Origin: Acholoe squamosa
Lineage: Eukaryota; Annelida; Polychaeta; Phyllodocida; Polynoidae
Assembly (NCBI GenBank): GCA_949317995.1
Contig: OX439047.1
Span: 50,603,505 to 50,667,504, forward strand
Length of the DNA stretch: 64,000 bases
Reading direction: 5' to 3'
The position numbers were made by a program, and so were the translations under genes. Below the pieces are notes generated by a model, which saw only the letters and a program-made list of their open reading frames with translations, was not told the origin of the DNA and did no database searches. Below are positions 4,745-56,962 of this stretch, in pieces. Position 1 is the first letter of the stretch. Each line of letters opens with the position of its first letter.

Positions 4745-5731
4745 TAATAATTAATGAACCTTGAATACCCCATTGACATTAGGAAAATATTCTAATCTGT
4801 AACTGAGATACTTTTCTCTCGAAACTGCTGGAATAATCACCCTAAATGTTAACTGACCAGCCGATGTTTCCCAAATGGGTGTTATGCGTAAATATGTATA
4901 GTATCAATGCGTATCTAGTGGGATATGACCCTTAGCAGTCAACAGATGTAATATGTTCTTTAACTTATTAACGGGTAATATCTCCCTAGACAATGCTCCC
5001 CTCTCCATTTGCATGCGCTGATTGTGGAAGGTAGTTGCTGCTGCTACATATTGTGCAGCAGCTGTCTCCATCAAAGTCAATGTTTGGTCTATGATACGTT
5101 TCACTTGTAAAAGTCTAATAGCTTGACCATGTGACCTTCCATTTTCTACCAAATGCTGAGTTAATGTCACAAGTTCATTGGGTTTGTCCTGTACCATTCT
5201 AATATTGTGTCGATTATTGTCTACTAGAGTCTTAGTTGCATTCATTACTGTCACCATTTTCTTGTTGTTGATCATAAGTTGCACAGTGTCCTGCTCCAAA
5301 TCTTTAACATATTTTGCGATTTGTGCCACATCTTCTTCAGTAGCTACACCAAATAAAGTTTTAGAAATTGTTCCAATGGAATTAACCAAACCTCGTTTGA
5401 TGCGGGTAGTCTCTCTCGGAACTCCTTCATCCTTGACTTTAGACTCAGCAAGCTGGAGCTGACTCAGCACATTTGAAAACCGGATCTTCCAAACATACTG
5501 ATCAGCTTCTGTTATGTGGTTCAGCAGTGTGATGTTATACTCCTCCAACTGGGCTTGCAAGACTTTGATGTCTGGTGGTGTTGGTGCCTGCAGCACAACG
5601 ATCAGAGTCCAAACACCAGACACCACACGGGTATCTCCCTGTTCCATGATGAGCACTCCATCCTCCTGTAACAAGGAACCAAAGGCAACATACAGTGTCA
5701 GGCTCCAACCAAGTAAGAATGGTAAATTCAT
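4745..5731 (-). pseudogene. env: Envelope (fusion glycoprotein) of element E, C-terminally truncated
   Basis: The open part (275 aa) begins with a hydrophobic signal peptide (residues 1-~20). A dibasic RIKR furin-type site sits at residues 110-113, directly followed by a small-residue hydrophobic segment typical of a fusion peptide. Long heptad-rich helices fill the remainder. This layout matches the Gypsy/errantivirus Env and baculovirus F fold, which mediates membrane fusion. The frame closes at 4,904, but recognisable env-like coding continues in another frame to about 4,750, so a small indel broke it. The Cys-rich stem and transmembrane anchor are missing. Its ATG lies 82 bases after the pol stop, as expected for a spliced env. 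Confidence 0.75.
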
Positions 5732-25077: not shown

Positions 25078-26968
25078 TAATGATAACGCCCATCTTTTCA
25101 GACGTTTCGAGGGCGCCTTGTGAGCTTGCATCAGTAATGATACTAATGGCTTGTGGTCTGTTACCACAGTCACTTTTCCTCCTTGCAACATATCTTCATA
25201 TGTTTTCAGTGCTTTTACTACGGCCAGGGCTTCCTTTTCAGTCACCGTGTAGTTGAGTTCTGCTCCATTCATTGTGTACCCAAAGTACAGGATAGGTCTG
25301 TATAGATCGTCGATTTTGTGGCAGATTGCAGCGCCACAAGCACGATCCGATGCATCTGTTAGCACTATGAAATGTCCACCTATCTCTGGGTGTATCAGCA
25401 ATGGTGGTGAAGTCAGTTTTGTCTGGATCTCCTGGAATGATGCTTCATACTTGTCAGTCCCTTCAAACGTTGCATATTTTTGTAGCAACTTGTTCAGAGG
25501 AACAGCTGCCTTGGCGAATCCCGGGATGAAGGAACGGTAGTAATTGCACAGTCCCAGGAACGATTTGACAGCTTTCACGTTCTTTGGTCTTTTCACTGCC
25601 TTGACCTTTTTAATGATCCTAGGTTGGGTTTCAAGACCTTGCTGATAATATGTCCCAAGTAGTTGATTCTGTCCTTACACCAATCACATTTTTCGGCTTG
25701 ATTTTTAAGTCCGCTTTGGCTAGTGCTTTCAGAACAAGTTGAACGTTTTTCAGGTGATCCTCAAATGTCTGGTCGTAGATTATTACATCATCTAGGTATG
25801 CCAAACATGTCCTTGGTATGAGGCCATTTAAAGCAGTAGACATTACCTTGGTAAACTACCATGGCGCTCCACAAAGGCCAAATGCTACACGTCGATATTG
25901 GTAGACTCCTGTAGGTGTTTCAAATGCTGTGTATTGTCTTGAATCCTTGTCTATCTCAACTTGATGGTATCCACTGAGAAGATCAAGTGCTGTGAACATA
26001 GTGGGTTTCTTGTATGCCATGAAGAGGAATAGAGATCTTGCTGTAGGCATGGGGAACTTGTCCTTGTACGTGATGGAATTAAGCCATCTGTAGTCTGTGC
26101 AGAGCCTGGGTTTTCCATTCTTTTTATAAGCCACTACAAGAGGGCTTCGCCATGCTGATTCACTTGGTTCTATCACTCCTATGTCCAGAAGCTGTTTCAC
26201 TTGCTCATCTATTACTTCCATTTTCTGTGGTGAGTATCTGTAGGGTCTTGTGCAGGCTATTCCTTTAGATTCATCCACTCTAATTTTCATTGGTGAAATT
26301 TTGCAATGACCGAGCTCAGACATGTCAAATGCAAGACTGTCTTGATTGTCCAATAGCATCTTTACAAATTCTTCCTTTTGTGTTTCATCCAGACAAGATT
26401 CACTTAGGTCGATCTGTTTTATCTTTTCTTCCTTTGGTGTTGTTTTCCTTCGTTCTTCAAACTGGTCAGCTGTCAATGATTTTACAAAATCTATTGCCAT
26501 TTGACACACTTCGGCTGGTATTCCCATTTTCTGTTGATGGTCTACTCTCAGGAAGTCTGTCAGATCTTCAGGGTCCAGTCCAGGTGCTTCACCTTTACTG
26601 GCGTATGCTAGGACATCATTCTTCCCCAGAATGATAGGTTTGTCTGAGCAATTCATGATTTTCATCCACCATGTTTTTCCTAGTTGGTTGACACTGCTTT
26701 CTACACATAGTGGTGCAAGTCCTGATGGTTCACAGAGTACTGTATCTCCTTGTTCTCCTTGTGCCTGTCTCCATGGTGAGACTGATATAATTTTCTCCTG
26801 CATAGGGAGCAATTTCTCGTTTTCTGTGCTTGATATTGGATTTCCTTTGAAGATTTCCACTTTTCTGTCTCCCATTTTCATATCTGCTTGAAGTGCTTCT
26901 AGTAGATTCCTACCAATCATGACATCGTTGCAAAGATTTTCCATGACATGGAAGTTGAAATATAGTTG
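25078..26968 (-). pseudogene. pol: Pro-RT-RNase H of element D, broken
   Basis: Starts with the end of a retropepsin (NDVMIGRNLLEAL, the IG strand). A ~200-residue linker leads to RT: WRSPLVVAYKKNGKPRLCTDYRWLN, FTALDLLSGYHQVEID and, after a TAG at 25,858-25,856, YLDDVIIYDQTFEDHL. A frameshift near 25,615 leads into the thumb and RNase H (VLTDASDRACGAAI; YTVTEKEALAVVKAL; VVTDHKPL). Integrase is missing because of the B insertion. Two lesions and truncation make it inactive. Confidence 0.85.
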
Positions 26969-27050
26969 TAGGTGCTTGTCCTGTCGCTCTCATTTCACAT
27001 TTGGGAGGGGGGATAATATCTGCGTCTAGTGGCATCTTTGTGTACTGTTA
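25078..27050 (-). mobile_element. Retroelement D: pol fragment interrupted by element B
   Basis: A Ty3/gypsy pol piece of another family, minus strand. At 25,077 its RNase H reading (VTDHKPLVSLLMQAH...) gives way exactly to the TG of B's LTR. The continuation is not found elsewhere in the window. The upstream edge near 27,050 is where protease-like coding fades into the octamer-rich promoter region. No LTR seen. Confidence 0.75.
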
Positions 27051-27089
27051 AAGTGTGATCCCATATTCTTCCAGTTTTATTCTGTTTCA

Positions 27090-27283
27090 ATATGCAAATA
27101 TGTCACATGACTTAATCTAATATAATATGCAAATGAATCATGTGGTGCATCACATGACATACAATCGGTAAAAGAAGAAACTTCTGGCATGTTCAGTATG
27201 CAAATATGTCACATGACTTGATCCAATATGATATGCAAATGAATCACATGGTGCATCACATGACAGAGTATCCAGTATATAAG
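27090..27283 (+). promoter_or_regulatory. Tandem octamer/E-box enhancer with TATA (copy 1)
   Basis: Two ~70-bp repeats offset by 107 bp (27,091- and 27,198-). Each has two perfect ATGCAAAT octamers (27,092, 27,126, 27,199 and 27,233) and TCACATGAC boxes. TATATAAG follows at 27,276-27,283. Octamers bind POU/Oct factors and CACATG is an E-box: this is the dense architecture of a viral or strong cellular promoter. It points at the small-protein copy at 27,369. Confidence 0.65.
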
Positions 27284-27368
27284 GAATGACCTGATTAGGA
27301 TTCTGCAGGCCTTTGCTTTGGTAAGGCTGAACTGAACGAACAGCAAAATGACAAGTATGGAGACATAA

Positions 27369-27654
27369 ATGAAAAGAGAAAATGAAGATACAGTCAGTGA
27401 ACCTGCGATCAACACTGGGTCCCTGACAACGCTTTTCAGAGAACTGTATGGTGAACCACTCATGCAGGACTTTGAGATCCTGACTGAGCAAGGCAGTTGA
27501 AGAGTTTTACAGTCTTGGTGGGAAATTGACCAAACCTGTCCGATTACTGGTGAAGAAAGCAGGGCCTCAAAGTGGACCGATAAACTACTTTTTCCCAGCG
27601 CATGTATGTGTGTCGTCTGAGCAGAAGAAATTGTCAACTGTCACATCCTTTTGA
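27369..27654 (+). pseudogene. Small-protein family copy 1, frameshifted
   Basis: ATG at 27,369, about 85 bp after the TATA box. The product resembles the intact copy at 30,730: LFRELYGEP matches LAELYAKFY, and after a frameshift at about 27,497 FYSLGGKLTKP and LLVKKA match FNSLGAELSQP and LLVKKA. It ends at TGA 27,652-27,654, earlier than the intact copy. The frame break shows it is a relic. I do not recognise the family. Confidence 0.6.
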
Positions 27655-27849
27655 TCTTCAAGTGAAGTTCTGAACATTTGGTGAAATGATTAAAGAAAGA
27701 AAAAAGAAAATATGCATTTGTTGTTTATGTCCGATCAGTATCAGTCTAAATGGTAGAGGTTGATGACTGTTCCACCCAGAATTCAATTTAGCTGCCATAC
27801 TTGTGCATAGCTTACTGTAAGATATGTCATCAAAGATATAGACAAAATA

Positions 27850-28221
27850 ATGCTAGATTGGGAAGGTGATACAGATGAGAAAATCCAGATAATCCTGTAC
27901 GACAACTTTCATGTGGGTGATTTGGAGGGAACGGATTTGCCATCGCTCTTCAAAATGGTAGAGTTTGGATTCCCGGAGACATTCCACTATTCGATTCCAA
28001 TTGGAATTTTTGATATGGAGGAATTTGTTTGCTGTCTGAAAAGAGGTGGCATCAGTTCTCCCCTCCTAACTGTAAAACTGAACCATATACTGAAAACGCT
28101 GACTCTGTCTCTCGATAGAATAGGGCACATAGACCATATCCTGTTTCAATACACATCAAATTATGGAGAAGATGGATTAGGATATCTTCATCTAGTTATA
28201 ACACTTGCTGAGCGTTCGTGA
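27850..28221 (+). CDS. Unrecognised 123-aa ORF, 5' part of a probable virus-derived gene
   Basis: Starts at ATG 27,850 (MLDWEGDTDEKIQ). It is acidic and hydrophobic in alternation (FHVGDLEGTDLPSLFKMVEFG), like a folded domain and not random sequence. It ends at TGA 28,219-28,221, but an overlapping frame (28,205-28,425) continues smoothly with VRDGYVLVKDSVEYL, so one indel near 28,210 probably split a single ~190-residue gene. It lies upstream of, and on the same strand as, the helicase remnant. It might be the N-terminal or origin-binding part of that protein, but I see no motif to prove it. Confidence 0.4.
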   Translation: MLDWEGDTDEKIQIILYDNFHVGDLEGTDLPSLFKMVEFGFPETFHYSIPIGIFDMEEFVCCLKRGGISSPLLTVKLNHILKTLTLSLDRIGHIDHILFQYTSNYGEDGLGYLHLVITLAERS

Positions 28222-28425
28222 TGGTTATGTTCTCGTTAAAGATTCTGTAGAATATCTCAGATGGATCGATGCCGTGTCTGATTACATCCCGAAACAGTTC
28301 TATGTCCCAAAGGTGGAGACCAGAAGTCAATTTCTGGAATTGCTTCTGGGGATGATGTCAGAGATCATCAGAGGCAATGGAGGAGGAGGAGATGATTGGC
28401 CATTTTGTACATGGACGGTCTTTTG
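28205..28425 (+). CDS. Continuation ORF ending GGGGDDWPFCTWTVF
   Basis: Overlaps the previous ORF in another frame and ends at TGA 28,424-28,426, directly before a hairpin containing AATAAA. Its last ~55 codons are duplicated at 28,473-28,640. The Trp/Cys-rich end (DDWPFCTWTVF) after a Gly run is distinctive. No family recognised. Confidence 0.4.
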
Positions 28426-28640
28426 AAAATAAAAGACCGTCCATGCATCTAATGGCATTTCAATACACAAACAGATGGATCGATGCCGTGTCTGATTACA
28501 TCCCGAAACAGTTCTATGTCCCAAAGGTGGAGACCAGAAGTCAATTTCTGGAATTGCTTCTGGGGATGATGTCAGAGATCATCAGAGGCAATGGAGGAGG
28601 AGGAGATGATTGGCCATTTTGTACATGGACGGTCTTTTGA
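28259..28640 (+). repeat. ~167-bp direct duplication, period 214 bp
   Basis: 28,259-28,425 recurs at 28,473-28,640 almost without change, with 47 bp between. The spacer contains GCATCTAATGGCATTTCAA (28,445-), which also occurs inverted at 30,440-30,408 just upstream of a promoter copy. Such a join of a gene end to promoter-proximal sequence would arise from a tandem or circular genome. Confidence 0.75.
28410..28444 (+). terminator. Hairpin with AATAAA at the end of the 28.2 kb ORF
   Basis: ATGGACGGTCTTTT and its reverse complement AAAAGACCGTCCAT flank six bases. The stem overlaps the stop codon, and AATAAA lies in the loop/3' arm. It probably supplies the poly(A) signal. The second duplicate keeps only the left arm. 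Confidence 0.5.
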
Positions 28641-28710
28641 ATATAAAAGTACCAAATTAAATACTGCTGTCTGACATGTCTGATAGGAATCTGAGGGGTG
28701 GGAATAATAG

Positions 28711-29282
28711 AAGTGCAATACCTACTGATGTCAGGCAAATCTGAAAGTGGAAAGACTATTCTTGCCACAGTTCTTCTTAGTCCCTTCACCAATGCAACTC
28801 TTGATCTGAACAATAACACTAACAAGTTCTGGCTTGAAGAAGCTGAGAATAAATGAGCTCTACTTTTTGATGACGTATTTGCAGTAGGACTCTGAGTTTT
28901 ACAGGACATGACTCCGAGCATTGATGGTGCATTGGAAGTTAGTCTAGACAGCAGGTACAGAAGCGCTGTACGTCGGCGATTTCCTCCGGGGATAATAACT
29001 ACCGATGTAACATCAACAGAGGCTGCTTTCCCAAAGCTTTATACCAGAGTGGTGGAAATCTCTCTACCAAATTCAATATCTGGAAAACACATGATTGAGT
29101 GCTCCAACAGGTTAATAAAATATCCAAGAGAAAAGCAAAATGGATGCCCTTGTATGTGCACTTGACATGTTCTATGTGGGCAAACCAGGGTCACTTCTCC
29201 AGAGGAAATAGAGTTACAAGATAAAGCACAGAGAATTCAACATCAGAAATTGCAAATCGAGGAGGAATGCACAAGAAGATAG
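28711..29282 (+). pseudogene. E1/large-T-like superfamily 3 helicase remnant
   Basis: In one frame: Walker A-like LLMSGKSESGKT (28,717-), a KFWLEEA segment, a hydrophobic strand ending in two Asp (ALLFDDV, Walker B), a block LDSRYRSAVRRRFPPGIITT containing the SF3 B'/sensor-1 region, and LYTRVVEISLPN. Order and spacing match the helicase domain of papillomavirus E1 and polyomavirus large T, which unwinds viral DNA as a hexamer. Two in-frame TGA stops lie between the FWLEEA and ID motifs, and another frame takes over near 29,165, ending in a Glu-rich tail with TAG at 29,280-29,282. The first Walker A residues differ from the usual GPxxxGK(T/S) (SGKSESGKT). It is dead as it stands. Homology to parvovirus NS1 is less good (no WWEE). 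Confidence 0.65.
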
Positions 29283-29417
29283 CTTTTCCAACTTTTTTCA
29301 TGTTATTGTTAAGAATGATAAAACAAAACAAAAGTAAAATGTATCATTGTTTTCTGACTACAATATAATTTCTATGCCAGATATACTCCCTGTTATATAC
29401 AGCCTGCACTTGTTTAG

Positions 29418-29534
29418 CTTTCGGTCATTAATTTTCTTTAAAACCCCGGAAAAATAAGGCCTAGATGAAAACCAAATATGCAGCTGAGAAACCTCTGACA
29501 AGGAACTCGTAGAGAGTTACTCACACGGAGGAAT
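29418..29534 (+). repeat. Left arm of a 7.2-kb-spaced inverted repeat
   Basis: Begins CTTTCGGTCATTAATTTT and contains AACCCCGGAAAAATAAGG and ACCAAATATGCAGCTG. It is matched in reverse complement at 36,455-36,580 with few differences over ~117-126 bp. Confidence 0.8.
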
Positions 29535-29544
29535 AGATAACATG

Positions 29545-29725
29545 GACAACATTATCTTTTACGCAAATTTAGAACAAAAATGTTAATTTTTAAATTTGTC
29601 ATGTGATTCTCAAGTATATAAAGTTATGCAAAACTTAACTCAGCAATTTGGTGGGAGCACAAATGTTTGGCATGCTGAGAGACCTGTTACTAGTTAAAAA
29701 AGGCAATTCTTTTGACAAGATGGAT
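29545..29725 (+). promoter_or_regulatory. Promoter copy without its gene
   Basis: TGTCATGTGATTCTCAAG then TATATAAAG (29,615-29,623), then a leader with GGTGGGAGCACAAATG and GGCATGCTGAGA, ending TTTGACAAGATGGAT. It is nearly the same as 30,600-30,735 up to the start codon, after which it diverges and stops at once. So this is a promoter-plus-leader copy cut off at the ATG. Confidence 0.6.
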
Positions 29726-29787
29726 TAGGTTGGAAGAGTTCACAATTTCTCATGATGAGGCATCACACGTATAGGTGCATCATCTTG

Positions 29788-30050
29788 TCAAGGATCCCTC
29801 TTTCTTCTACGTTTAGTTTGACACCTCTGTCTCCTCTGTAGCAGTCTGGGAAATAGTAGTATGTCGGTCAATTTACCACCAAGGCAGTTGAACTCTTCAA
29901 GTGCCTCACTCATTTCCGCCAAAGTTCCAAACTCCGCTATGGCTGGTTCACAGTGCAACTCCCCATGTAGTTCTGCCAGGGATACAGCGCTTGTAGATTC
30001 GGTGTGGATACTTCCCACAGGTGGTTGTAAAGTAGAAAGAAGAGAGTCTT
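29788..30050 (-). pseudogene. Small-protein family copy 2 (minus strand)
   Basis: SLAELHGELH and EEFNCLGGKLTD on the minus strand match LAELYAKFY and FNSLGAELSQP of the intact copy in order and spacing. The product ends in a basic RRRKRDP instead of the longer C-terminus. No in-frame ATG is present: a stop precedes the aligned part, although ATGACCTATAAG lies just upstream in another frame. It is downstream of its own minus-strand promoter copy. Confidence 0.55.
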
Positions 30051-30340
30051 ATAGGTCATCACTTGTGTAGGTAGTAACATTGTTGGATCTTTTTGTGATA
30101 TCCTGAGATAAAAACCTATTCCTCTTCCTTTTTCTTGAAACTCTTTTCACCTTTGCTTTATTCTGTAATGGGTCATTGCGCATTATGTTCAAAATTTGTT
30201 GGACAGTCAATACCATGTTTGACACTCCTTGCCAGTTACTGGGTGTATGTCTTCACTGATGTCTGGATACTGACCATTTTGTTTCTTCTTTAGCTGAGCC
30301 TCAGAGATGAGAAGGTCTAAAGGATGCTATTCCTGTCATT

Positions 30341-30440
30341 GCTTATATACTGTATAGAGATGCACCATGTGATTCATTTGCATTTCATATCGGATCAAGT
30401 CATGTGACCTGTTTGTGTATTGAAATGCCATTAGATGCTA
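30341..30440 (-). promoter_or_regulatory. Octamer/E-box/TATA promoter, minus-strand copy
   Basis: On the minus strand: GGTCACATGACTTGATCC, one ATGCAAAT octamer (30,383-30,376), ATCACATGGTGCATC, then GTATATAAGC (30,350-30,341). This is the 27.2 kb promoter in the opposite orientation. Confidence 0.6.
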
Positions 30441-30479
30441 TTCCTGTCATTGCTCATATTCTGGATCTTTTATCATGTG

Positions 30480-30640
30480 ATTTACCATGTGACCGTTTCA
30501 TTCTTCTTTTTTTCCTAATTTGGTCATGTGACTTTGTCTGCTTTAATATGCAAATAAGATTACATGACTGGTGATCTAGTATGCTCTACCGACTGACCCA
30601 AATTCTGATTTGGTCATGTGATTCTCAAGTATATAAAGCT
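30480..30640 (+). promoter_or_regulatory. E-box/octamer/TATA promoter of the intact small-protein gene
   Basis: Four TCATGTGA/CATGTGAC-type boxes, one ATGCAAAT (30,548-30,555) and TATATAAAG at 30,630-30,638. An AGGTAAGA match to the 5' splice consensus lies at about 30,700, between TATA and the ATG at 30,730. Together with 30,341-30,440 it forms a divergent promoter pair only ~200 bp across. Confidence 0.6.
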
Positions 30641-30729
30641 ATGCAAAAACTGAAGTTGGCAACTTGGTGGGAGCACAAATGGTTGGCATGCTGAGATACT
30701 AGGTAAGAAAAGGCAGTTAGTTTGACAGG

Positions 30730-31104
30730 ATGGAACAGAACAAAGAAGCTAATGGTGGGCCTCCCACCAACCGAGGATCCAGATTGGCAGAACTATATGC
30801 TAAATTTTACCATGTGACACCATCGGAGGACGAGATCATGACCTTGAGAAATATGAACGAGTTCCGTGACGACTTCAACAGTCTCGGGGCAGAATTGTCC
30901 CAACCCTTCCATTTACTGGTGAAGAAAGCTGATGGTGGGCCAACGTTTTACAAATTCCCAGCGTGTTACACCAGAGAAATTGACATAATCACATTGATTG
31001 ATGCAGAAATTGAGACCCTGAATCGCTTGATGGCAATGTATGTTTGTAACATGGTTGCAGAGAACTGTCGACTTAGCCATCCATTCGCTGTTAGTGTGCA
31101 ATAA
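30730..31104 (+). CDS. Small-protein family, intact copy 3 (124 aa)
   Basis: ATG in good context (GACAGGATGG), 92 bp after TATA, and a TAA followed at once by AATAAA (31,101-31,107 area). The protein has a disordered start (NGGPPTNRGSR), then LAELYAKFYHV, an acidic helix (SEDEIMTLRNMNEF), FNSLGAELSQP, a β-like FHLLVKKADGGPTFYKF and a helical C-terminus with two Cys. It is the only unbroken member of three related copies, each next to the same promoter type. It contains no motif I can assign. Size, single exon and promoter suggest a viral-type early gene; a lineage-specific host gene remains possible. Confidence 0.6.
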   Translation: MEQNKEANGGPPTNRGSRLAELYAKFYHVTPSEDEIMTLRNMNEFRDDFNSLGAELSQPFHLLVKKADGGPTFYKFPACYTREIDIITLIDAEIETLNRLMAMYVCNMVAENCRLSHPFAVSVQ

Positions 31105-31107
31105 AAA

Positions 31108-32711
31108 AGAAAAGAAAAAAAAGTTTTGTCAGTTTGTTTTTCTTTGGCATATATAGAACTACTTTGTCCAATATTCAAATGGCTGGGCCATATCAGCACC
31201 CAGTTTAGGGGCTACGGATCTCATTTGGCAATGTTGCAGAATTCATTTGACCCTGCGCCAGTTGGGCACTTTGGCTAGGCTTGGGAGTCACCTTTTGGCC
31301 ATTTACCAAATATACATGAGGCCTAAGTTAGTAGGCATGGCAGCTTAATTTTTAAAATCGGCCAATACACTATTGTAATACACCAAAATGTAGGTTTTGG
31401 TCCCAAGAAGCAATATCCAGCATCAGATTTTAGAAAAAAATAATTTAGGGGGGGTGTTGCTATGAAAATGATACATGCGAATTTAAGGGAAATTGGCGAT
31501 TTTCGATGCTAGATGGCCCCAGGTGAATAACTCCTGAAATAATTGTCATAGGCACCCAATTCTTTTTTTAGATTGAAGCCAACATCACCCTGAAGCTATA
31601 GGAACAGGTTTTACAGAGCTGTATAGTGTATTCTCCTTGCAGATCTACAATGAAGTTATCAACCAATGAAATTTTTTTTTTTTTTTCATATTTCAAAAAA
31701 ATCTTTAAACAACTCTGCTTATCTCTTTACAGGTTCACAGATACTTTGTATTCCAGCAGACCAGCACAGCTGTCTTAACAAAACTTGTTTAAATCAATCC
31801 TGGTTGACAAATATAGCACCTCCAAGATATCCAAATGAAACAATAAATCCATGCTTGACGCACACTATGAACCTGACCTGCAATCTACTTTGTCATGAGG
31901 GATCAAACCCAGGGATCAAGGGCCGAATTCATGATGATTGAGAGAGTCATAGTACCATCAACATGTTGCTTTACAATAATGTTCAACAATAATATCATGA
32001 GTAAATAATCCCCCCCCACCCCCTAGGATATCGACAAATACTGGTCCCCTTCTACATGAACCTGGTGGCCTAAACAATCACAAGGTCTAGAGTCTAATGC
32101 ATGCTAATCCATATACCCCTTGACAGCTATTAATACATTAGTCAATTTAGTGCATCATACTTCTTTGTCAATATGATGCACCAAGGAAGTATTGGTAAGT
32201 CGCTCACCAGCATGTCATTGATGCATCATACAGACCCTATGGTTGATGAGTTTACTCAGCCAGGATTCAACCCAGTAGAGATGAGTAACTCAAAACAGGT
32301 GTGTACAATGTATTCCAACATCATGCAGACCAATGGGCATGATGTATCAATATATAGTAAAAAAAGTGATAGCCTACAGTTATCATACTTATAAACTTAT
32401 AATTATACTCTTAAGCCACTGTGTGCTACTTAATGAGTCATAATAATAGTTTTGTATGTAGGGCGGGATAGAGTGGATTCCCACCAACTATTACATAACT
32501 GTACCCTACAACCAGTGTAAAGTACATGTTGATAACCAGCTACAGCTAGACCGGCCGGCGCCACCTACAACACGCCAGGTCGGAATAGAAATGCACCCTG
32601 ACCCAATAGCCTCAAATCTCATTTGCTTAAATGTTGGAACGGTGCACCATTGCACAGTTGGCAAGTAGACTTGCTAGGACTGCATTGATGCATCATGACA
32701 ACCAACGAACA
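31108..32711. other. Non-coding stretch with satellite-like relics
   Basis: No convincing gene. From 31,200 to 31,345 there are decayed relatives of the 96-bp satellite (CTTTTGGCCATTTACCAAAT). A T-run is at 31,671-31,687, and a C-run at 32,010-32,024. A Cys-rich open stretch (31,730-31,940) follows a TTTACAG acceptor-like site, but it shows no other support. Confidence 0.5.
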
Positions 32712-33235
32712 TAGAAAGGTTTTCCTGTGTGGGTTTACATGCAAAAATGATGTATTTAACCCCACCCATGGCCCTAGATGTAATGTGGTAATGGAATATT
32801 GATATAACAGTGTAAGTTATGTTGTGTTTTGGTACTTTGTAAGCTGAAAAAGATTAGAAACTTGCATTTGTTTGGCTGGTTCTGGGGCCAGCCCCACTGC
32901 CACTCCCCAGTCAGGACTGTCACTTTGACAGTCAGGTGGGAGGGGCTAGCCTAATGTGTATGTGAATGTACATGTACATATTAAGGGAGGGGGTCATTTT
33001 TTTCATTGGCTGGGGGAACTCATTAGCATAGAATCCAATGGTGGAAGGTGGAGTTATTAACAGGGAAACTTCCATAGATATCCTAGATGAACATGCCATG
33101 CCTACTTTCTCCATTTTGTTCGAAATAAATAAGAATCCATTGATTTTCCATAGCGATACGTCTCGGAACACGAGTGACCCCGGCTGACCTCCTTGCCGGA
33201 AGTGGTTCAGCCGAAAGTAGGTCAGGTACATCCGG

Positions 33236-33551
33236 GCACCTACCCGCTTCGTCAACAAGACGAAATGGCCGTGTACCGGGCCGTGTGCGTTGGATCGCTA
33301 TGGAAAATCAATGGATTCTTATTTATTTATAAGAAAATGGATACAAAATGTAGGCGAACACCAACTAGAGATCGTATATTTGGTGGTGCTAGAAGTACAG
33401 GACTTGACATGCTTGGATTCTACCCGAAAAGTCGTTGGAAAGATGAGGGTATGACGGGTGGAGTAAAAACAATGGCTACGGTGGCTTGGCAAACCGTGCG
33501 GATCGCATGCACTTACAAAATGTCTTCTCCTGGATTAAATCTGGGGTTATC
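33236..33551 (+). CDS. Possible captured exon inside the foldback element
   Basis: An open frame through RDRIFGGARSTGLDMLGFYP, SRWKDEGMTGG and AWQTVRIACTYKM ends at a good 5' splice site (ATCAGGTAAGAAAT, ~33,551). The composition looks protein-like, unlike the surrounding simple sequence. There is no family assignment, and part of the frame overlaps the 35-bp inverted repeat. It may be chance. Confidence 0.25.
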
Positions 33552-33773
33552 AGGTAAGAAATTAATACAAGATAGAGAAAAATGTGAGATAAACACCTTA
33601 ATGTATGTTATGGAAAAGCACTCGTGGGTTTAGGGTTAATATTATAAATAATCCACTCCCACTGCGCAGTCATGGATTAATATTAACCCATAAACCCACT
33701 TGTGCTTTCCCATAACATACATTAAACGCATAATATCTATTTTTTGGTCCAATCCAGGCCAAATCACAACAAT

Positions 33774-34229
33774 ATGATATTAGCCCCCCCACCTTCTGTG
33801 CCCCCCTCCCACACACGCAAACAACCCAAAATGACCACCCACCCCTATACATAAATGTGTGTTTACATGCATGGATCCCCCCCCAGCAAAAAAAAATGAC
33901 CACCCTTTAATACATGTACATTCACATACATATGATATTAGCCCCCCCACCTTCTGTGCCCCCCCACACACACACACAAACAACCCAAAATGACCACCCA
34001 CCCCTATACATAAATGTGTGTAAATGCATGCCCCCCCCCACCCAGCCAAAAAAAAAGACCACCCTTTAACATTCACATACATAGTAGCCCCTCCCCCCCC
34101 ACCACACAGAAATTGATACATGTGTGTGTGTGTGTGTGTGTCTACATGCATGCCCCCCCCCAGCCAAAAAGAAATGACCCCCCCTCCCTTAATATGTACA
34201 TGTACATTCACATACACATTAGGCTAGCC
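33774..34229. repeat. Three ~150-159-bp C-rich tandem units with (GT)n
   Basis: Units start at 33,774, 33,933 and about 34,083 and share TAGCCCC..., CACAAACAACCC, CACCCCTATACATAAATGTG and CATGTACATTCAC. A (GT)n microsatellite is at 34,119-34,141. Confidence 0.7.
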
Positions 34230-35016
34230 CCTCCCACCTGACTGTCAAAGTGACACTGACAGTCCTGACTGGGGAGTGGCAGTGGAGCTGGCCCCAGAAC
34301 CAGCCAAACAAATGCAAGTTTCTGATCTTTTTCAGCTTACAAAGTACCAAAACACAGCATAACATACACTGTTATATCAATATTCCATTACCACATTACA
34401 TCTAGGGCCATGGGTGGGGTTAAATACATTGTTTTTGCATGTAAACCCACACAGGAAAGCCTTTCTACCACCTGCCTCCTCCTCCATGTGTTTAGATGTC
34501 TTGGTTGTAGGTCAGAAGGGGTGTATCCACTTTCTGGAACAGCCAGCACACTCTCCCTGCAGAGAGTGGTGTAGTGCTGTGCCAATATGAAGGGGCTGGT
34601 GGTTGCCTGGAGAGTGGCTGTACCAAGAAGTGCCACACCCCCTCCAATGTTTTTGGCTGTATTTTGGCTGGCCATGGACCAATCAGAATCATTTCTGGTT
34701 TGAACATGACCCAAATGTTGTATGACTAGATGAGGCTAGGTTAGATTTAGGTATCTCTTCCTGGGAGTTTTTGGTGGCTGTTTACAGAATATAGAGGCTG
34801 ATTACACACCATTTTGGTCCCAGGAGTGGAGAAAACCTGGAGGATACAATGACTTGAGGTGTTGGAAGGTAATGTCCTTTTGGAATCATCAAAAAATATC
34901 TAAATGTGAGAGAGTGACAAGCCAGCCAAATTTAGGTGTTTTGGACTGAGAAAACTGGGCCATGCGATGGGCGGCGGTGGTGGCGCTACCGTCGGTGACA
35001 CTGCCGTGCCTAGCCT

Positions 35017-36170
35017 AAGCTTGTGAGTGTTATTTTTTGGCCATTTGCGGAATAAGCACTCAGTCCTAGTGCCTAGAACATCATTTGGCCATTTTCCAAA
35101 TAGACACCAGGGCTAAACTTGTGAGTGACTTTCTGACCATTTGCCAAATAAGCACTCAGCCCTAGTGCCTAGAACATCATTTGGCCATTAGCCAAACAGA
35201 CACCAGGGCTATGCTTGCGAGTGACTTTCTGGCCATTTGCCAAATAAGTAACCAGTCCTAGTGCCTAGAACATCATTTGGCCATTAGCCAAACAGACACC
35301 AGGGCTAAGCTTGTGAGTGACTTTCTGGCCATTTGCCAAATAGGCACTCAGTCCTAGTGCCTAGAACATCATTTGGCCATTTGCCAAACAGACACCAGGG
35401 CTAAGCTTGTGATTGACTTTCTGGCCATTTGCCAGATAAGCACTCAGTTCTAGTGCCTAGAACATCATTTGGCCATTAGCCAAATAGACACCAGGGCTAA
35501 GCTTGTGAGTGACTTTCTGGCCATTTGCCAAATAAGCACTCAGTCCTAGTGCCTAGAACATCATTTGGCCATTAGCCAAATAGACACCAGGGCTAAGCTT
35601 GTAAGTGACTTTCTGGCCATTTGCCAAATAGGCACTCAGTCCTAGTGCCTAGAACATCATTTGGCCATTTGCCAAACAGACACCAGGGCTAAGCTTGTGA
35701 GTGACTTTCTGGCCATTTGCCAAATAAGCACTCAGTCCTAGTGCCTAGAACATCATTTGGCCATTAGCCAAATAGACACCAGGGCTAAGCTTGTGAGTGA
35801 CTTTCTGGCCATTTGCCAAATAGGCACTCAGTCCTAGTGCCTAGAACATCATTTGGCCATTTGCCAAACAGACACCAGGGCTAAGCTTGTGAGTGACTTT
35901 CTGGCCATTTGCCAAATAAGCACTCAGTTCTAGTGCATAGAACACCATTTGACCATTAGCCAAATAGACACCAGGGCTATGCTTGTGAGTGACTTTCTGG
36001 CCATTTGCCAAATAAGCACTCAGTCCTAGTGCCTATAACATCATTTGGCCATTTGCCAAACAGACACTAAGACTAGGCATGGCAGTGTCTTTCTGCCATT
36101 GTGCCAAATCAGCACTTAGTCCCTTTGACTGGGTGTTGATTTGGCAATGTGCCAGATGAGCACCTAGAGC
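35017..36170. repeat. 96-bp satellite, 12 monomers, alternating two types
   Basis: Monomers begin (AAGCTTGTGAGTG) at 35,017, 35,115, then every 96 bp to 36,075, the last one degenerate. Each contains TGGCCATTTGCCAAATA and TTTGGCCATTAGCCAAA-type half-palindromes. From about 35,499 type a (AATAAGCAC...ATTAGCCAAATAG) alternates with type b (AATAGGCAC...ATTTGCCAAACAG), giving a 192-bp higher-order unit. Confidence 0.9.
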
Positions 36171-36846
36171 ATGTGTAGAATTGACTGGCTGGCTTATTGC
36201 AAAATCAACACTCAGTCCTAGTGAAGAAGTGCCTATTTTACCTCAAACCAGGGCCAGGAGTCAGGGCCAACGCAAAATAATCAGGTCTGATCACATGACA
36301 CATTGGGCACGTGGTCGACTTCTGCAGATGTGTCCAATTTTTTTTCAGGGCCAGACTTTATCAATGCACTCCTTAAACACCTGCTTTAGCGTCAGATTTG
36401 GCCAGACCTCAGGACCTGAACAACCCAAACCATGTCCCGAGTGTCAAATCATTCATTCCTCTGTGTGAGTAACTCTCTATGAGTTCTTTGACAGAGGTTT
36501 CTCTGGTAGAGCAGCTGCATATTTGGTTTTCATCTAGCCCTTATTTTTCCGGGGTTTTAAAAAAAATTAATGACCGAAAGATTATGATATAGTATTGTAC
36601 TTTTTATTAGATATTATTTTTGCGTTAACGCTAATAATAATATATACGCGTTAACGATGAAATACAATAGTGTTAGATAGCAAAAAACTGTTCCATGTCT
36701 ATGTAAGGGATTCTTCTGTACAAAGTAAGCTGTTCTTACATATGTAAAAAATAAATTATTATAGTGTAAGTTATATCTTTTCAATTTTTGTATGTCATAT
36801 CCAGAATAAGATAAAAGACTAATATAACAAGTACATTGTTTTTCAG
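36171..36846. other. AT-rich stretch between satellite and exons
   Basis: Holds a decayed satellite monomer to about 36,230, the right inverted-repeat arm and an AT-rich segment with CGTTAACG twice (36,624 and 36,650 areas). I see no gene. Confidence 0.5.
36455..36580 (-). repeat. Right arm of the 7.2-kb-spaced inverted repeat
   Basis: Reverse complement of 29,418-29,534, ending ...TGACCGAAAG at 36,580. Immediately outside the two arms the flanks share no obvious duplication. Confidence 0.8.
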
Positions 36847-53130: not shown

Positions 53131-53232
53131 TACTCCTCCCTGAACATACCTGTGGGCAGTGACCCACTACTGCAGCCTGCCAGCCTAAGGGCACACACAC
53201 ATGGGACTCTTCCACTGCTTCAATTTTTTGTT
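53027..53232 (+). repeat. Ngaro repeat A1
   Basis: GTGAGACCAATCCTG through CACTGCTTCAATTTTTT, matched at 58,061-58,260. Contains a (CA)n run (53,101-53,127) that is shorter in A2. Confidence 0.9.
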
Positions 53233-55177
53233 TTTTTTATGCATCATGGTGGTTTGTTTGGTATGCCAACAGGCATACCATGGCAACAAAAAGCACTGCC
53301 CCAACTGTGGGGTGCTAAACCACAAACTCACGGAGGAGACCAGGAGTAATGCAGTTTTTCATGAGGAAGAAGGGGGAGACCAAGGAGCTTCCAATATGGC
53401 CACCCCCTTGGGAGAGAGAAGGCAGAGTAATACACAGCCAAAGTCACCAGAAGCTATTCTCCAGGAGAAGATTGCTATAGCAGAAGAGAAGGCAGGACTA
53501 CTCAGAAAAAAAGGTGACCTCTTAGCATTAGAAGAAAGGCTAGCCTTAATTGACTTAGAGAATGCAGAACTGGAGGAGGATTACAAAAAATCCCTCAAAG
53601 ACATACAGCAGAAGCAGCAGAGTGCTGCACACAAGAGGAGGGGTGCATTCGTAAATTTTCATGATTTGACTGCACCTAACAGCAGCTATTACCAGGGAGA
53701 AACGTTTACGAACGCACCCAGGAGCAGCAGCAGATACGCCGACGACCGAGCGGAGTACACAACATTTACGAATGCAGCCAGCAGCGCCAAAGCCGAGGAC
53801 GCCCGGACCTTGCCGAGCGCCTCCGAAGGCATATCCAACCCGAACACGGCCGGACACATACGGAGATACCCGAATGCCGCCGAAAACGGGCTCGGAGAGA
53901 TTCGGGGACGGTCGGCAGATGTACGGAGAATACCGAACGCCACTTCGGGTTTCTTCGGCGACGTAAACCCCTACAGCGGATTGAAAAAGAGCGGTCACGG
54001 CTTGGATTACGATACACACCAGAAAGCAAACGCAAGCGGCATATTAACCAACGAGGATATACCGAGCGCTGCCGACAGCCTAGGTCGGAAACTTTCGGAT
54101 TACGTCGGCTCGGGCAAGTTCGGCAATGTTCGTGAACGCTCGGGAGTGCAAGATGGCGTTCCTTCCGCTTTCGCCGAGGGAGACAATTTGCAGCAGGAGT
54201 TTATGCTTTTTTTGGCTGGAAAACAGCAAAAATTGCTCAATCAGGCCAAGCAGAACCCAGTAGGCAGTGCTCCAGTCCCAACCACAGCAGCACAGGAGGT
54301 ACCACAGCTGTATTACTTGGATGGGACACCCTACACTGGGTCTTTGCCTGACACACAACATCAACAACACAGGATCACACCACCCAAGCTTCCCCCCTCT
54401 GCTACCATCCAGGCTGGATTATCAACTGCAGGCCTGACAGCTGAGAATATGGGCGTGGAGGGGGACCTTGCCGGCTACCTGGATGCAAAGGACCAAGGTG
54501 ACTTGTTATCCACTTTATTTAAGATAGGTGAAGCTTCTAAGAAAAAGAGGTCACAACACTGGTTAAGGCCAGATTACCACATTCCCACTGACAAAGTCTA
54601 CTCTGATATGACATACAGAGAGCTAATATATGGTATGACATGTGTCCAGGAGAAGTTAGCTATTGCTAATTTACCACAGTGGTCTGCAAAAAGTTATGGT
54701 GACCATATGAGATTCGTAGCTAGGAAGGGCCTCAATGCCACTTATACCTCGAGTGCACTAGCTAAATATGAGCACGATCTCACTACTAGAGTGATTTCAG
54801 GGGAGTTACCCGGATTTCAGACAGCTGAGCACGCATCAGTCTCTGATAATTTGGGCTCCGATAACCTACAGGTGGTACAGGATTTGAAGGCTGAATTAGC
54901 CAGATTAAAAGCAGGTAACAAACAAGGCACTAAAGGTAAAGGCCCCTCTACTCAAAACAGAATCCATTGCCCTACGGATGTTTGTGCTTTGTTCAATTTC
55001 ACTAGATGTTGGTATAACCCATGTAACAGGCAACACGTATGCGCGGTATGTAAGGGCCCCCACCCAGCAAAAGGGGGGTGCAAAAATCAGCCAACAACCA
55101 CAAGCAGTGGAGCAAACAATAATGCGGGAGGGGGGTCAACCTTTTTCGCACCACCGATCCACTCCCGCGTATCTTGA
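53201..55177 (+). CDS. Ngaro ORF1 (Gag-like), 658 codons or less
   Basis: The open frame begins within A1; the true start may be the first ATG (53,201) or one downstream such as MATPLGERRQS (53,396). A hydrophobic/Cys-rich start is followed by a coiled coil (~residues 85-135) and a Ser/Ala/Asn-rich middle (~165-325) that is strikingly CpG-rich with NA-motif repeats (FTNAPR, FTNAAS, YPNAAE, IPNATS). Then comes a helical core (TDKVYSDMTYRELIYGM) and a C-terminal Cys/His cluster (CWYNPCNRQHVCAVCKGPHP), the zinc-binding motif typical of DIRS/Ngaro ORF1. It ends at TGA 55,175-55,177, with ORF2 in the same frame. Confidence 0.8.
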   Translation: MGLFHCFNFLFFLCIMVVCLVCQQAYHGNKKHCPNCGVLNHKLTEETRSNAVFHEEEGGDQGASNMATPLGERRQSNTQPKSPEAILQEKIAIAEEKAGLLRKKGDLLALEERLALIDLENAELEEDYKKSLKDIQQKQQSAAHKRRGAFVNFHDLTAPNSSYYQGETFTNAPRSSSRYADDRAEYTTFTNAASSAKAEDARTLPSASEGISNPNTAGHIRRYPNAAENGLGEIRGRSADVRRIPNATSGFFGDVNPYSGLKKSGHGLDYDTHQKANASGILTNEDIPSAADSLGRKLSDYVGSGKFGNVRERSGVQDGVPSAFAEGDNLQQEFMLFLAGKQQKLLNQAKQNPVGSAPVPTTAAQEVPQLYYLDGTPYTGSLPDTQHQQHRITPPKLPPSATIQAGLSTAGLTAENMGVEGDLAGYLDAKDQGDLLSTLFKIGEASKKKRSQHWLRPDYHIPTDKVYSDMTYRELIYGMTCVQEKLAIANLPQWSAKSYGDHMRFVARKGLNATYTSSALAKYEHDLTTRVISGELPGFQTAEHASVSDNLGSDNLQVVQDLKAELARLKAGNKQGTKGKGPSTQNRIHCPTDVCALFNFTRCWYNPCNRQHVCAVCKGPHPAKGGCKNQPTTTSSGANNNAGGGSTFFAPPIHSRVS

Positions 55178-56962
55178 TGTACAAATAATATTGACGGTGC
55201 CCATGATATTCCGGATTCCTACGGTTCCGCGGTCAATGTAACAACCGACAATTTACCAGACATTTATTGTGATAGAGACTTGCTTGTGTGTACTTCGGAC
55301 ATATCAGAATTATTGTCAATTTATGTAAGCTATGCTCCATTGTGGGATATTAACTCCACCCATATCCTAAAAGGGGTCAGATCTCAAATGAAACCCGCAG
55401 GCTGGTTATCAATGCTTAGTGGAGGCCCTAATTCGGTTTATGGTACAAATGGTTGGGATTATGACGCCGCATTCCTAATGGACGGCATAATGCACGGGTT
55501 TAAAGTAGTGGACCCAAACACACATATTAGTGAGTATAGCACTAAGAACTATGTACCCCAAGAAGCAAGGAACTTCATTGATAACCTGTTAAAGACAGAA
55601 GTAGACCAAGGCAAATTGTCTATAGTCACAGCAGCACCTACTTGCATCCACGCCTTAGGTGCGGTTGAGAAAAGAGATGGCGGTTATAGACCGGTAACGG
55701 ACGCCAGTAGACCAGAAGGTCTATCTATTAATTCACACATGAACGAGACATTCCACCACTTTAGTTACACTAGCATCGATGATGTGACCAAGGTGCTCCG
55801 ACCCGGTATGTTCATGGCAGTCATAGACATTTCTGCAGCATACCGCTCTATTATGATTAGGCCAAGCGATAGGCAATTCCAGGGCCTACAGTGGACATTC
55901 GACTCACAGAAAGTGTATTTAGTGGACAACTTTGTGTCATTCGGCACTAGAATGGCTGCATTCCTCTTTAATAGGATTACTGACAGCATAGCTCGTTATA
56001 TGAGAGCTAACGGTTATTATTGCTTTAATTATCTCGATGACTTACTTACTATGGGTAACTCATATGCGGAGTGCCAAAAAGCACAGTTGTTTCTACATAG
56101 CACACTGCACTCGTTGGGTTTTTTCTTATCCTATAAGAAGGTTCTTTCACCTGCACAAGTTCAAATTTATCTAGGGATAGAAATTGACTCACTACAAATG
56201 TGCCTCAGACTACCGGAGAGCAAGATCAATAAATTGCACAGTGAGCTACGTTTCTTTGTAGGTTGTCGAAGGGCAACCAAGAAACAGCAGCGCCGTTTAT
56301 GCGGGATCTTAGCACACTGCTCTACTTTAGTCAGGGGGGGCAGGACATTCTCTCACAGAGTCATAGGCATGTTATCTGCGTTCACGAGCACTAAAAGGTA
56401 CATAACCCTCTCTACCGGGTTCTTCAAGGACCTAGACTGGTGGCTAAGATTCGCAAAGTGGTTTAATGGCGAAGCAAAAATTGTCAGCACTCTACCGTCC
56501 ACAAAAAGTGACTTATACATGGACGCATCAGACAGGGGTTACGGTGTCAGGTACGGCAAGGACTGGATATGTGCAGGTTGGGGATGCAGGATCAGTATGA
56601 ACATAGACAGTCATGGACACTGCCTCCCGCCACCTAGTCAATTCGTGCCTGAAAACATAAACATCAGGGAGCTATACCCCATCTTAATGGCGATTAATAG
56701 GTGGGGACCTTTGTGGCGCAATAGGAAAATTGTCTGTTACACGGATAACACCCATGTAGTAAGCGCACTGAATAAGGGCAAAAGTACAAATACAAGAGCG
56801 ATGGACTTCCTGAGAGAACTGTTTTGGCTTACAGCTCTTTATAACTGCCATATTGTAGCATTACATATCCCAGGACGACTTAATGTCCTTGCAGATGCTT
56901 TGTCAAGAGTGTTATATTATCCGCATAACCTTCCTATGTATCTATGTTGTAGCGGCGGCTAA
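55178..56962 (+). CDS. Ngaro ORF2: reverse transcriptase and RNase H
   Basis: Open directly after ORF1's TGA in the same frame; the first ATG is not until about 55,388, so readthrough is likely. RT: a proximal domain (RPVTDASRPEGLS), motif A AVIDISAAYRSI, motif B FGTRMAAFLFN, motif C FNYLDDLLTM. RNase H: LYMDASDRGYG, IRELYPILMAIN, VCYTDNTHV and LADALSRVL supply the four acidic residues. It ends at 56,962, overlapping the recombinase ORF by 80 bp. All catalytic residues are present. Confidence 0.9.
   Translation, partial: CTNNIDGAHDIPDSYGSAVNVTTDNLPDIYCDRDLLVCTSDISELLSIYVSYAPLWDINSTHILKGVRSQMKPAGWLSMLSGGPNSVYGTNGWDYDAAFLMDGIMHGFKVVDPNTHISEYSTKNYVPQEARNFIDNLLKTEVDQGKLSIVTAAPTCIHALGAVEKRDGGYRPVTDASRPEGLSINSHMNETFHHFSYTSIDDVTKVLRPGMFMAVIDISAAYRSIMIRPSDRQFQGLQWTFDSQKVYLVDNFVSFGTRMAAFLFNRITDSIARYMRANGYYCFNYLDDLLTMGNSYAECQKAQLFLHSTLHSLGFFLSYKKVLSPAQVQIYLGIEIDSLQMCLRLPESKINKLHSELRFFVGCRRATKKQQRRLCGILAHCSTLVRGGRTFSHRVIGMLSAFTSTKRYITLSTGFFKDLDWWLRFAKWFNGEAKIVSTLPSTKSDLYMDASDRGYGVRYGKDWICAGWGCRISMNIDSHGHCLPPPSQFVPENINIRELYPILMAINRWGPLWRNRKIVCYTDNTHVVSALNKGKSTNTRAMDFLRELFWLTALYNCHIVALHIPGRLNVLADALSRVLYYPHNLPMYLCCSGG

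What the first reader, a model, noticed from the sequence alone, without database searches (positions are those of the whole stretch)
27060..31110. Endogenous small-DNA-virus-like locus with an E1/large-T-like helicase
Seen: an ordered set of SF3 helicase motifs (SGKSESGKT; ALLFDD; FPPGIITT; LYTRVVEISLPN) on the same strand as, and near, compact octamer/E-box/TATA promoters and short single-exon genes. Known: the FWL...DD...ID...PP-ii-T arrangement is characteristic of papillomavirus E1 and related large-T helicases. Inference: the locus derives from an integrated E1-like DNA virus (papilloma-, polyoma- or adomavirus-related) or a transposon carrying such a helicase. It carries stops and frameshifts as found.
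Basis: partly seen in the sequence, partly recalled or inferred. Interest (0 to 1): 0.9.

Follow-up and report, generated by a model that had tools for sequence, protein, structure and literature searches.

The report
Giant virus-like element with papilloma/polyoma-type helicase
The broken papilloma/polyoma-type helicase gene seen here belongs to the end of a huge (about 160-180 kb), recently spread, virus-like mobile element found in many nearly identical copies in this animal's genome, a kind of element not clearly described before.

Summary
The helicase is real. Its two open pieces (28695-28853, 28896-29162) both have the Pfam papillomavirus E1 helicase as best hit. The window copy is broken; an intact relative in the same 1.48-Gb genome scores E1 3.9e-13 and large T 5.7e-12. 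It is not a compact small-virus locus but the decayed, truncated end of a giant dispersed element: 10 of 11 fetched near-identical copies, and the window, share one exact terminus (window 36580) with different flanks. Two copies align for 35.5 kb at 97.5-99.8%. A marker 38 kb from the terminus recurs in a +,-,+,- layout; in 9 of 12 copies its outermost hit is 161-181 kb away. Near the terminus lie genes for the helicase, two separate proteins homologous to its N-terminal half, a BIR (apoptosis-inhibitor) protein, a Death-domain protein, BTB-BACK and RING proteins, and small paralogous genes. None of 44 family-B polymerase matches falls in these intervals. Three of the 12 copies gave no helicase match. 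Most likely this is an endogenous large DNA virus or virus-derived giant transposon that starts replication with an E1/large-T-type helicase. Capsid, integrase and the far end were not found; the virus order is unresolved.

The parts
25856..26944 (-). Gypsy-type retroelement fragment abutting the truncated edge of the element; not part of it
   Evidence: RVT_1 1e-10; element homology starts at 27002
27002..29691 (+). Element segment in four pieces, 93-95% identical to the copy on C12 (L009 7278-4194), cut off at 27002
   Evidence: blastn
27086..27272 (+). Tandem 81-bp octamer/E-box repeat followed by a TATATAAG box (about 27276): promoter-like or origin-like array
   Evidence: repeat, 89%; enrichment
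27369..27651 (+). Broken copy of small gene 2 (132 aa in L009), in two open pieces
27850..28423 (+). Broken copy of the 196-aa ORF of unknown function
   Evidence: 14 gap positions, 4 stops as aligned
28472..28649 (+). Duplicate of 28258-28435 (178 bp, 99%)
28695..28853 (+). Helicase piece with Walker A (SGKSESGKT) and FWLEE
   Evidence: PPV_E1_C best Pfam hit, E 0.044
28896..29162 (+). Helicase piece with FPPGIITT and LYTRVVEISLPN
   Evidence: PPV_E1_C E 1.2e-4; 11 of 12 PDB chains large T/E1
29418..29534 (+). Inner inverted copy of the 126-bp terminal repeat (86%)
29691..30288 (.). Sequence with no long match in copy L009 at this point; holds a minus-strand third small-gene paralogue (29791-30048)
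30288..31312 (+). Element segment continuing (93.5% to L009 4195-3181)
30600..30648 (+). E-box/TATATAAAG promoter-like stretch of small gene 1; copy at 29585-29633
   Evidence: 88%
30730..31104 (+). Small gene 1, intact 124-aa ORF with AATAAA overlapping its stop codon; 72 matches in the host genome, no Pfam, PDB or protein-database hit
31312..35015 (.). Sequence without a match in copy L009 (insertion in the window copy)
35015..36223 (.). 96-bp-period tandem repeats of the terminal region
36455..36580 (-). Outer 126-bp terminal repeat; outer edge at 36580 is the element terminus
   Evidence: same exact edge in 10 other copies with different flanks

Best explanation
The locus is the decayed terminal ~9.6 kb (insertions included) of one copy of a giant dispersed element, about 160-180 kb, best read as an endogenous large DNA virus or virus-derived giant transposon. 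SHOWN: many near-identical copies with one exact terminus; a terminal region with a 126-bp inverted-repeat pair; a repeated +,-,+,- internal marker layout; mostly intact genes, under purifying selection where tested, for an E1/large-T-type helicase, two proteins homologous to its N-terminal half, small proteins, and BIR, Death, BTB-BACK and RING proteins (selection not tested for the last four). INFERRED mechanism: the helicase, helped by the separate N-terminal-domain proteins, assembles at the octamer/E-box and inverted-repeat arrays near the terminus, unwinds the DNA and recruits host polymerases (no family-B polymerase was found in the element), as E1 and large T do; BIR and Death-domain proteins would keep the cell alive during amplification; copies then enter new chromosomal sites through the fixed terminus with an enzyme not yet found.
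For: PF00519 in the host genome: 36 matches; 0 of 14 control genomes. 10 of 11 near-identical slices (L009-L018, not L019) plus the window end exactly at CTTTCGGTC with different outer flanks; the C12 copy abuts DIRS sequence whose continuous form is in the window (one side only). Copies A and B align at 97.5-99.8% for 35.5 kb. A 551-bp marker: 37 of 40 scored places fall in 12 copies, in 11 of them at 32-46 (+), 41-55 (-), 157-167 (+) and 167-181 kb (-) where present; outermost hit 161-181 kb in 9 of 12. The 732-bp helicase gene is stop-free in 10 of 10 full-length near-identical copies and identical in 7. Pfam: BIR 4.4e-16, Death 3.9e-11, BTB 9.5e-14, BACK 1.7e-11, three RING ORFs. dS/dN: helicase 0.52/0.18, small gene 0.60/0.18, N-terminal proteins 1.05/0.37. 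Relatives of 496 and 480 aa at 63 and 62% in other datasets. None of 44 PF00136 matches lies in the element intervals.
Against: No capsid, terminase, protease, integrase or transposase was identified, but only about 38 kb of one copy and 35 kb of another were read from the terminus, plus a gene-poor 10-kb slice (L035) whose membership is untested. Three of the 12 copies in the size table (C6:59.34, C15:51.17, C15:59.28) gave no PF00519 match, so the helicase may be lost or diverged there. Only 3 long copies show all four markers; 3 of 40 marker places (C5:951051, 968722, 972924) belong to no known terminus, and only 40 of 189 candidates were scored. The far end was not reached and no target-site duplication was shown. 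PF02499 gave nothing, with a silent control. The N-terminal domain matches no PDB origin-binding domain. The 30-40 kb zone is repeat-rich.
Confidence: 0.6

Rival explanations
1. A non-viral giant transposon (with an unseen transposase) that captured an E1/large-T-type helicase and host apoptosis and ubiquitin genes.
For: Exact terminus, dispersed recent copies, host-like BIR/Death/BTB/RING genes, repeat-rich zone; no capsid gene seen.
Against: Compact single-frame genes with promoter-like and poly(A) signals and an E1/large-T replicase are virus-like; no transposase seen either.
Confidence: 0.25
2. Small E1-like DNA virus locus as first proposed: papilloma-, polyoma- or adomavirus-related genome integrated at 27060-31110.
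For: Helicase profile scores; promoters and single-frame genes; adomaviruses with E1 or large-T replicases and E1-bearing cressviruses are reported from invertebrates and other animals (PMC11071296, sections read).
Against: Copies extend at high identity for at least 35.5 kb with shared terminus and a ~160-180 kb marker layout; no capsid hit among 17 element ORFs scanned.
Confidence: 0.06
3. Host segmental duplications or an assembly artefact that merely contain an old viral helicase.
For: The genome is rich in repeats; tandem arrays vary in length among copies; three marker places lie outside known copies.
Against: Ten sites on different chromosomes or far apart with an identical edge and different flanks; older diverged subfamilies under purifying selection.
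Confidence: 0.07

Closest known systems
Papillomavirus E1 and polyomavirus large T replicative helicases (PF00519, PF06431)
   Same: Walker A, DD and FPPGIITT motifs in order; profile match to large T extends upstream of the helicase core (positions 130-406)
   Different: Neither family wins clearly; in the main subfamily the helicase half (243 aa) and the N-terminal half are separate genes
Teratorn (piggyBac-herpesvirus fusion, medaka; PMC5601938, passages read)
   Same: ~180 kb, multi-copy, intact ORFs, long internal repeats
   Different: Teratorn carries herpesvirus polymerase, capsid and terminase, piggyBac transposase and 18-bp TIRs; none identified here
Endogenous nimaviruses of crustaceans (PMC10871703, passages read)
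   Same: Large DNA virus acting as giant mobile element, BIR genes
   Different: They insert at specific repeats with tyrosine recombinase or Ginger2-type integrase; here ten different flanks, no integrase found, E1/large-T-type helicase
Integrated malacoherpesvirus of Branchiostoma belcheri (PMC12373286, passages read)
   Same: ~150-kb integrated animal DNA virus
   Different: [quoted passage not shown] here 10 or more copies, no herpesvirus gene found
Adomaviruses, including the Tegillarca clam virus with RepE1 (PMC11071296, sections 12, 14, 17, 18 read)
   Same: E1- or large-T-type replicase in an aquatic animal virus
   Different: Much smaller genomes (size recalled, not from a call) with adeno/adinto-like capsids; no such size or capsid seen here

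Membership tests
E1/large-T SF3 helicases | Ordered Walker A, Walker B (DD) and PP-x-TT motifs with E1/LT profile as best hit | tested here: met
   two parvovirus-like ORFs of the same genome score Parvo_NS1 best instead
E1/large-T SF3 helicases | Origin-binding domain N-terminal to the helicase | tested here: inconclusive
Papillomaviridae / Polyomaviridae | Small circular genome of about 5-8 kb (size recalled) | tested here: not met
   35.5 kb aligned between two copies; marker layout to 161-181 kb in 9 of 12 copies
Papillomaviridae / Polyomaviridae | L1/L2 or VP1 capsid | tested here: inconclusive
   No Pfam capsid hit among 17 ORFs of the C12 copy; most of the element unread
Adomaviruses | Hexon/penton/adenain-type late genes in a midsize genome | tested here: inconclusive
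   Size does not fit; late genes not seen in the 17 scanned ORFs
Herpesvirales / Teratorn | Terminase and capsid genes | tested here: inconclusive
   PF02499: 0 matches but control silent; capsid not searched
Herpesvirales / Teratorn | Own family-B DNA polymerase | tested here: not met
   None of 44 PF00136 matches lies in the 12 element intervals
Teratorn | piggyBac transposase and TIRs at both ends | not tested
   Transposase not searched; far end not reached
Nimaviridae | Nimavirus core genes and integrase | not tested
   -
Polinton/Maverick, adintovirus | Protein-primed PolB and retroviral-type integrase in a much shorter TIR element (recalled) | not tested
   Size does not fit; PF03175 not searched
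Parvoviridae | NS1 helicase | tested here: not met
   No Parvo_NS1 hit for the window pieces (E up to 10) or L003 (E up to 1)

The most novel reading that the evidence does not exclude
A new lineage of herpesvirus-sized (~170 kb) animal DNA virus or virus-like transposon that is still, or was very recently, spreading in the germ line and that starts replication with a papilloma/polyoma-type initiator, split into separate helicase and N-terminal-domain proteins, while borrowing the host's polymerases and carrying its own BIR, Death-domain, BTB and RING genes.
Probability: 0.35. Interest if true: 0.92.

Novelty: new variant of a known kind. Interest (0 to 1): 0.76.

Why it matters
E1/large-T initiators are known from small and midsize viruses. 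A ~170-kb element using one, in many near-identical germ-line copies with intact genes, would show that this replication system also drives giant mobile elements and that a split initiator is viable. It would be a further, independent case of a giant virus-like transposon in animals, and the purifying selection and near-identical copies make recent activity directly testable.

Tried and rejected
Small-virus reading of 27060-31110: rejected on copy boundaries. Parvovirus origin: rejected by Parvo_NS1 silence, with the C3 and C14 parvovirus-like loci as internal contrast. Viral contigs: five related-loci scans gave no confirmed relative; the alignment query was unusable. The intact 124-aa small gene found nothing at E<=1 in 5.8 billion proteins. 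The 656-aa element protein (L031:3552-5522) has 60 homologues, one named by organism, Mactra antiquata, but no PDB hit (13-member profile) and no shared Pfam domain among 39 members, so it does not name the virus. Far end by way of the DIRS flank of the C12 copy: the search returned only other DIRS copies (40 of 258 candidates scored). Herpesvirus terminase search uninformative. Rfam: nothing at gathering score in the window. Own-genome searches with the full helicase and the 656-aa protein, and with slice L035, were asked repeatedly and never answered. My note says 11 of 11 copies carry the terminus; the correct count is 10 of 11 slices plus the window. The helicase comparison L003 against L022 was saturated at synonymous sites and gives no dS.
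Full report
OBSERVATION. The frame is broken by stops, so the pieces were searched apart. Piece 28695-28853 (53 aa) and piece 28896-29162 (89 aa) both have Pfam PPV_E1_C as best hit (E 0.044 and 1.2e-4, both under the curated cut-off), the second with large T at 0.06, and no Parvo_NS1 at E up to 10. In the PDB 11 of 12 chains listed for the second piece at E<=10 are large T or E1; the best E is 0.053, so by itself this is a ranking rather than a significant match. Promoter-like elements are enriched above first-order Markov expectation in 27002-31312, partly because blocks are duplicated.

THE HOST GENOME DECIDES. The window is C13:50603505-50667504 of a 1.48-Gb, 63-contig genome. PF00519 has 36 matches there and none in 14 control genomes. 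By position and ORF length these are: 10 near-identical loci with a 265-aa frame, one related 238-aa locus, the window, two C16 loci, two C17 loci, three loci on C6, C9 and C10, 14 in one tandem array on C12, and three parvovirus-like loci on C3 and C14 (Parvo_NS1 1.6e-25 and 7.8e-22 for the two ORFs scanned). The L003 locus (C16) has an open 457-aa frame: PPV_E1_C 3.9e-13 and Polyoma_lg_T_C 5.7e-12; PDB large T 2.5e-13 and E1 1.1e-5, 11 of 11 chains at E<=1. A seven-sequence profile gives large T 1.4e-22 and E1 1.7e-12, again 11 of 11, covering the region after the N-terminal ~130 positions. So the protein is E1/large-T-type but sits between the two families. Among 5.8 billion proteins three relatives were found, at 63, 62 and 31% identity.

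BOUNDARIES. Ten-kb slices around 11 closely related copies (L009-L019) were fetched with nine others. Ten of the 11 (not L019) and the window carry a 126-bp sequence whose outer edge is the same base, CTTTCGGTC, with a different flank each time; an inner inverted copy, 2.2-3.9 kb away in those ten, has the same neighbour in each. In the window the outer edge is 36580 and the inner copy 29418-29534. No further copy of the repeat was seen on the far side, but only 40 of 79 candidates were scored. The C12 copy abuts a DIRS sequence whose uninterrupted form is in this very window at about 54312; only this one side could be compared. At the other side the window copy is cut at 27002 beside a Gypsy fragment.

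SIZE. Copies on C12 and C18 align from the terminus for 35.5 kb, up to the end of what was fetched, at 97.5 to 99.8% identity, with tandem arrays differing in length. A 551-bp marker taken 38 kb from the terminus matches 40 places at 99-100% over 549-551 bases; only 40 of 189 candidates were scored, so counts are lower bounds. Of the 40, 37 fall in 12 copies with a known terminus and 3 lie on C5 near a contig end without one. Relative to the terminus the 37 form one pattern: + at 32-46 kb (12 of 12 copies), - at 41-55 kb (10), + at 157-167 kb (7) and - at 167-181 kb (6); one further copy is shorter, with the second pair at 82 and 92 kb. In 9 of the 12 copies the outermost marker lies 161-181 kb away; three long copies show all four; for two copies only the first pair was returned. 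The element is therefore about 160-180 kb or more, with internal inverted repeats. The far end was not reached. Three of the 12 copies (C6:59.34, C15:51.17, C15:59.28) have the terminal repeat and both small genes but no PF00519 match.

GENES. In the C12 copy, going inward from the terminus: small gene 1 (124 aa), helicase half (243 aa with its own ATG), a 196-aa ORF, small gene 2 (132 aa), a BIR protein (PF00653, 4.4e-16), a protein with Death-domain matches (3.9e-11), two ORFs (232 and 235 aa) homologous to the N-terminal half of the L003 helicase, a 753-aa ORF, a repeat region, a 656-aa ORF with 60 database homologues, a BTB-BACK protein and three RING ORFs. The N-terminal-half ORFs stop about where the helicase half begins, so this subfamily has a split initiator, whereas L003 and the database relatives are fused.

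RECENCY AND SELECTION. The 732-bp helicase gene is stop-free in 10 of 10 full-length near-identical copies and identical in 7 of them; the BIR gene was found in 9 of the 21 stretches compared (stop-free in 9 of 9) and the Death-domain gene in 9 (stop-free in 8). Between diverged copies or paralogues dN is well below dS (helicase 0.18/0.52; small gene 0.18/0.60; N-terminal proteins 0.37/1.05). Older copies are mosaic: L020 shares the 196-aa gene at 97.6% but the helicase at only 80%. The window copy is 93-95% identical to L009 and broken, except that its small gene 1 remains open.

MECHANISM. Inferred: initiation by the helicase at the repeat arrays near the terminus; host polymerases, because none of 44 PF00136 matches falls in the 12 element intervals; BIR and Death-domain proteins prolong cell life; integration through the fixed terminus by an unidentified enzyme.

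RESULTS AGAINST A VIRUS. No capsid, packaging, protease, integrase or transposase gene was identified, but only 17 ORFs of the C12 copy were scanned with Pfam and most of the element is unread; PF02499 was silent in the genome and in the controls; the 30-40 kb zone is repeat-rich; a 10-kb slice at C12:60.18 Mb is gene-poor, has no match to the first 40 kb and its membership is untested. A giant transposon that captured a viral helicase remains open.

KNOWN SYSTEMS. Giant virus-like elements are known: Teratorn (PMC5601938, passages), endogenous nimaviruses (PMC10871703, passages) and an integrated malacoherpesvirus in lancelets (PMC12373286, passages). E1- or large-T-bearing viruses of invertebrates and other animals are known (PMC11071296, abstract and sections 12, 14, 17, 18). 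Seven paper searches (listings only, apart from the papers named) showed me no report of a >100-kb element with an E1/large-T helicase; the library lacks most subscription journals, so this is weak evidence of novelty.

HOST. Chromosome-scale contigs and one bivalve-named homologue of the 656-aa protein (Mactra antiquata, 39% identity) are compatible with a mollusc, but this was not established.

Noticed in passing
G000 contig ends, e.g. C3:92834084, C5:13431, C8:116416, C12:78540157: 30 of 44 family-B DNA polymerase matches, 16 of them in open frames of 1749 aa, lie within about 330 kb of contig ends (where the length is known) or on small contigs: apparently another, subtelomeric, large virus-like element.
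   Followed up: no
L022 (C17:48406500-48416499): A 480-aa E1/large-T-type helicase ORF (E1 3.6e-16) in a segment repeated at about 5.0 kb spacing (98.4%), with 487-, 258-, 152- and 98-aa ORFs of unknown kind: looks like a tandemly integrated small virus-like unit.
   Followed up: partly
G000:C12:8657698-8679637: Tandem array of 14 helicase matches at mostly about 1.54-kb spacing, 13 with 213-aa frames, with a small-gene match next to it at 8680826.
   Followed up: no
L027 (C14:65834000-65843999) and L028 (C3:11762500-11772499): Parvovirus-like loci with NS1 (and a phospholipase A2 domain in L027), with internal direct repeats at about 5.9 and 4.1 kb.
   Followed up: partly
window 53201-57941: DIRS-like retroelement (reverse transcriptase; weak Phage_integrase match 9e-4); an element copy on C12 abuts the same family.
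   Followed up: partly
L031:3552-5522 (minus): 656-aa protein of a conserved family with 60 homologues, without a shared Pfam domain or PDB match; the start looks to me like a clamp-loader collar (recalled, not tested).
   Followed up: partly
window 4904-5731 (minus): Envelope-like ORF next to a Gypsy-type pol gene (looks like an errantivirus-type F protein, from memory; not searched).
   Followed up: no
G000:C1:58868665 and 58937354: In the C1 copy the inner and the presumed outer terminal repeat lie 68.7 kb apart: a large insertion or expansion in the terminal region, if they are a pair.
   Followed up: no
G000:C5:951051-973474: Three copies of the internal marker near a contig end with no terminal-repeat match on C5: a partial or different copy of the element.
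   Followed up: no
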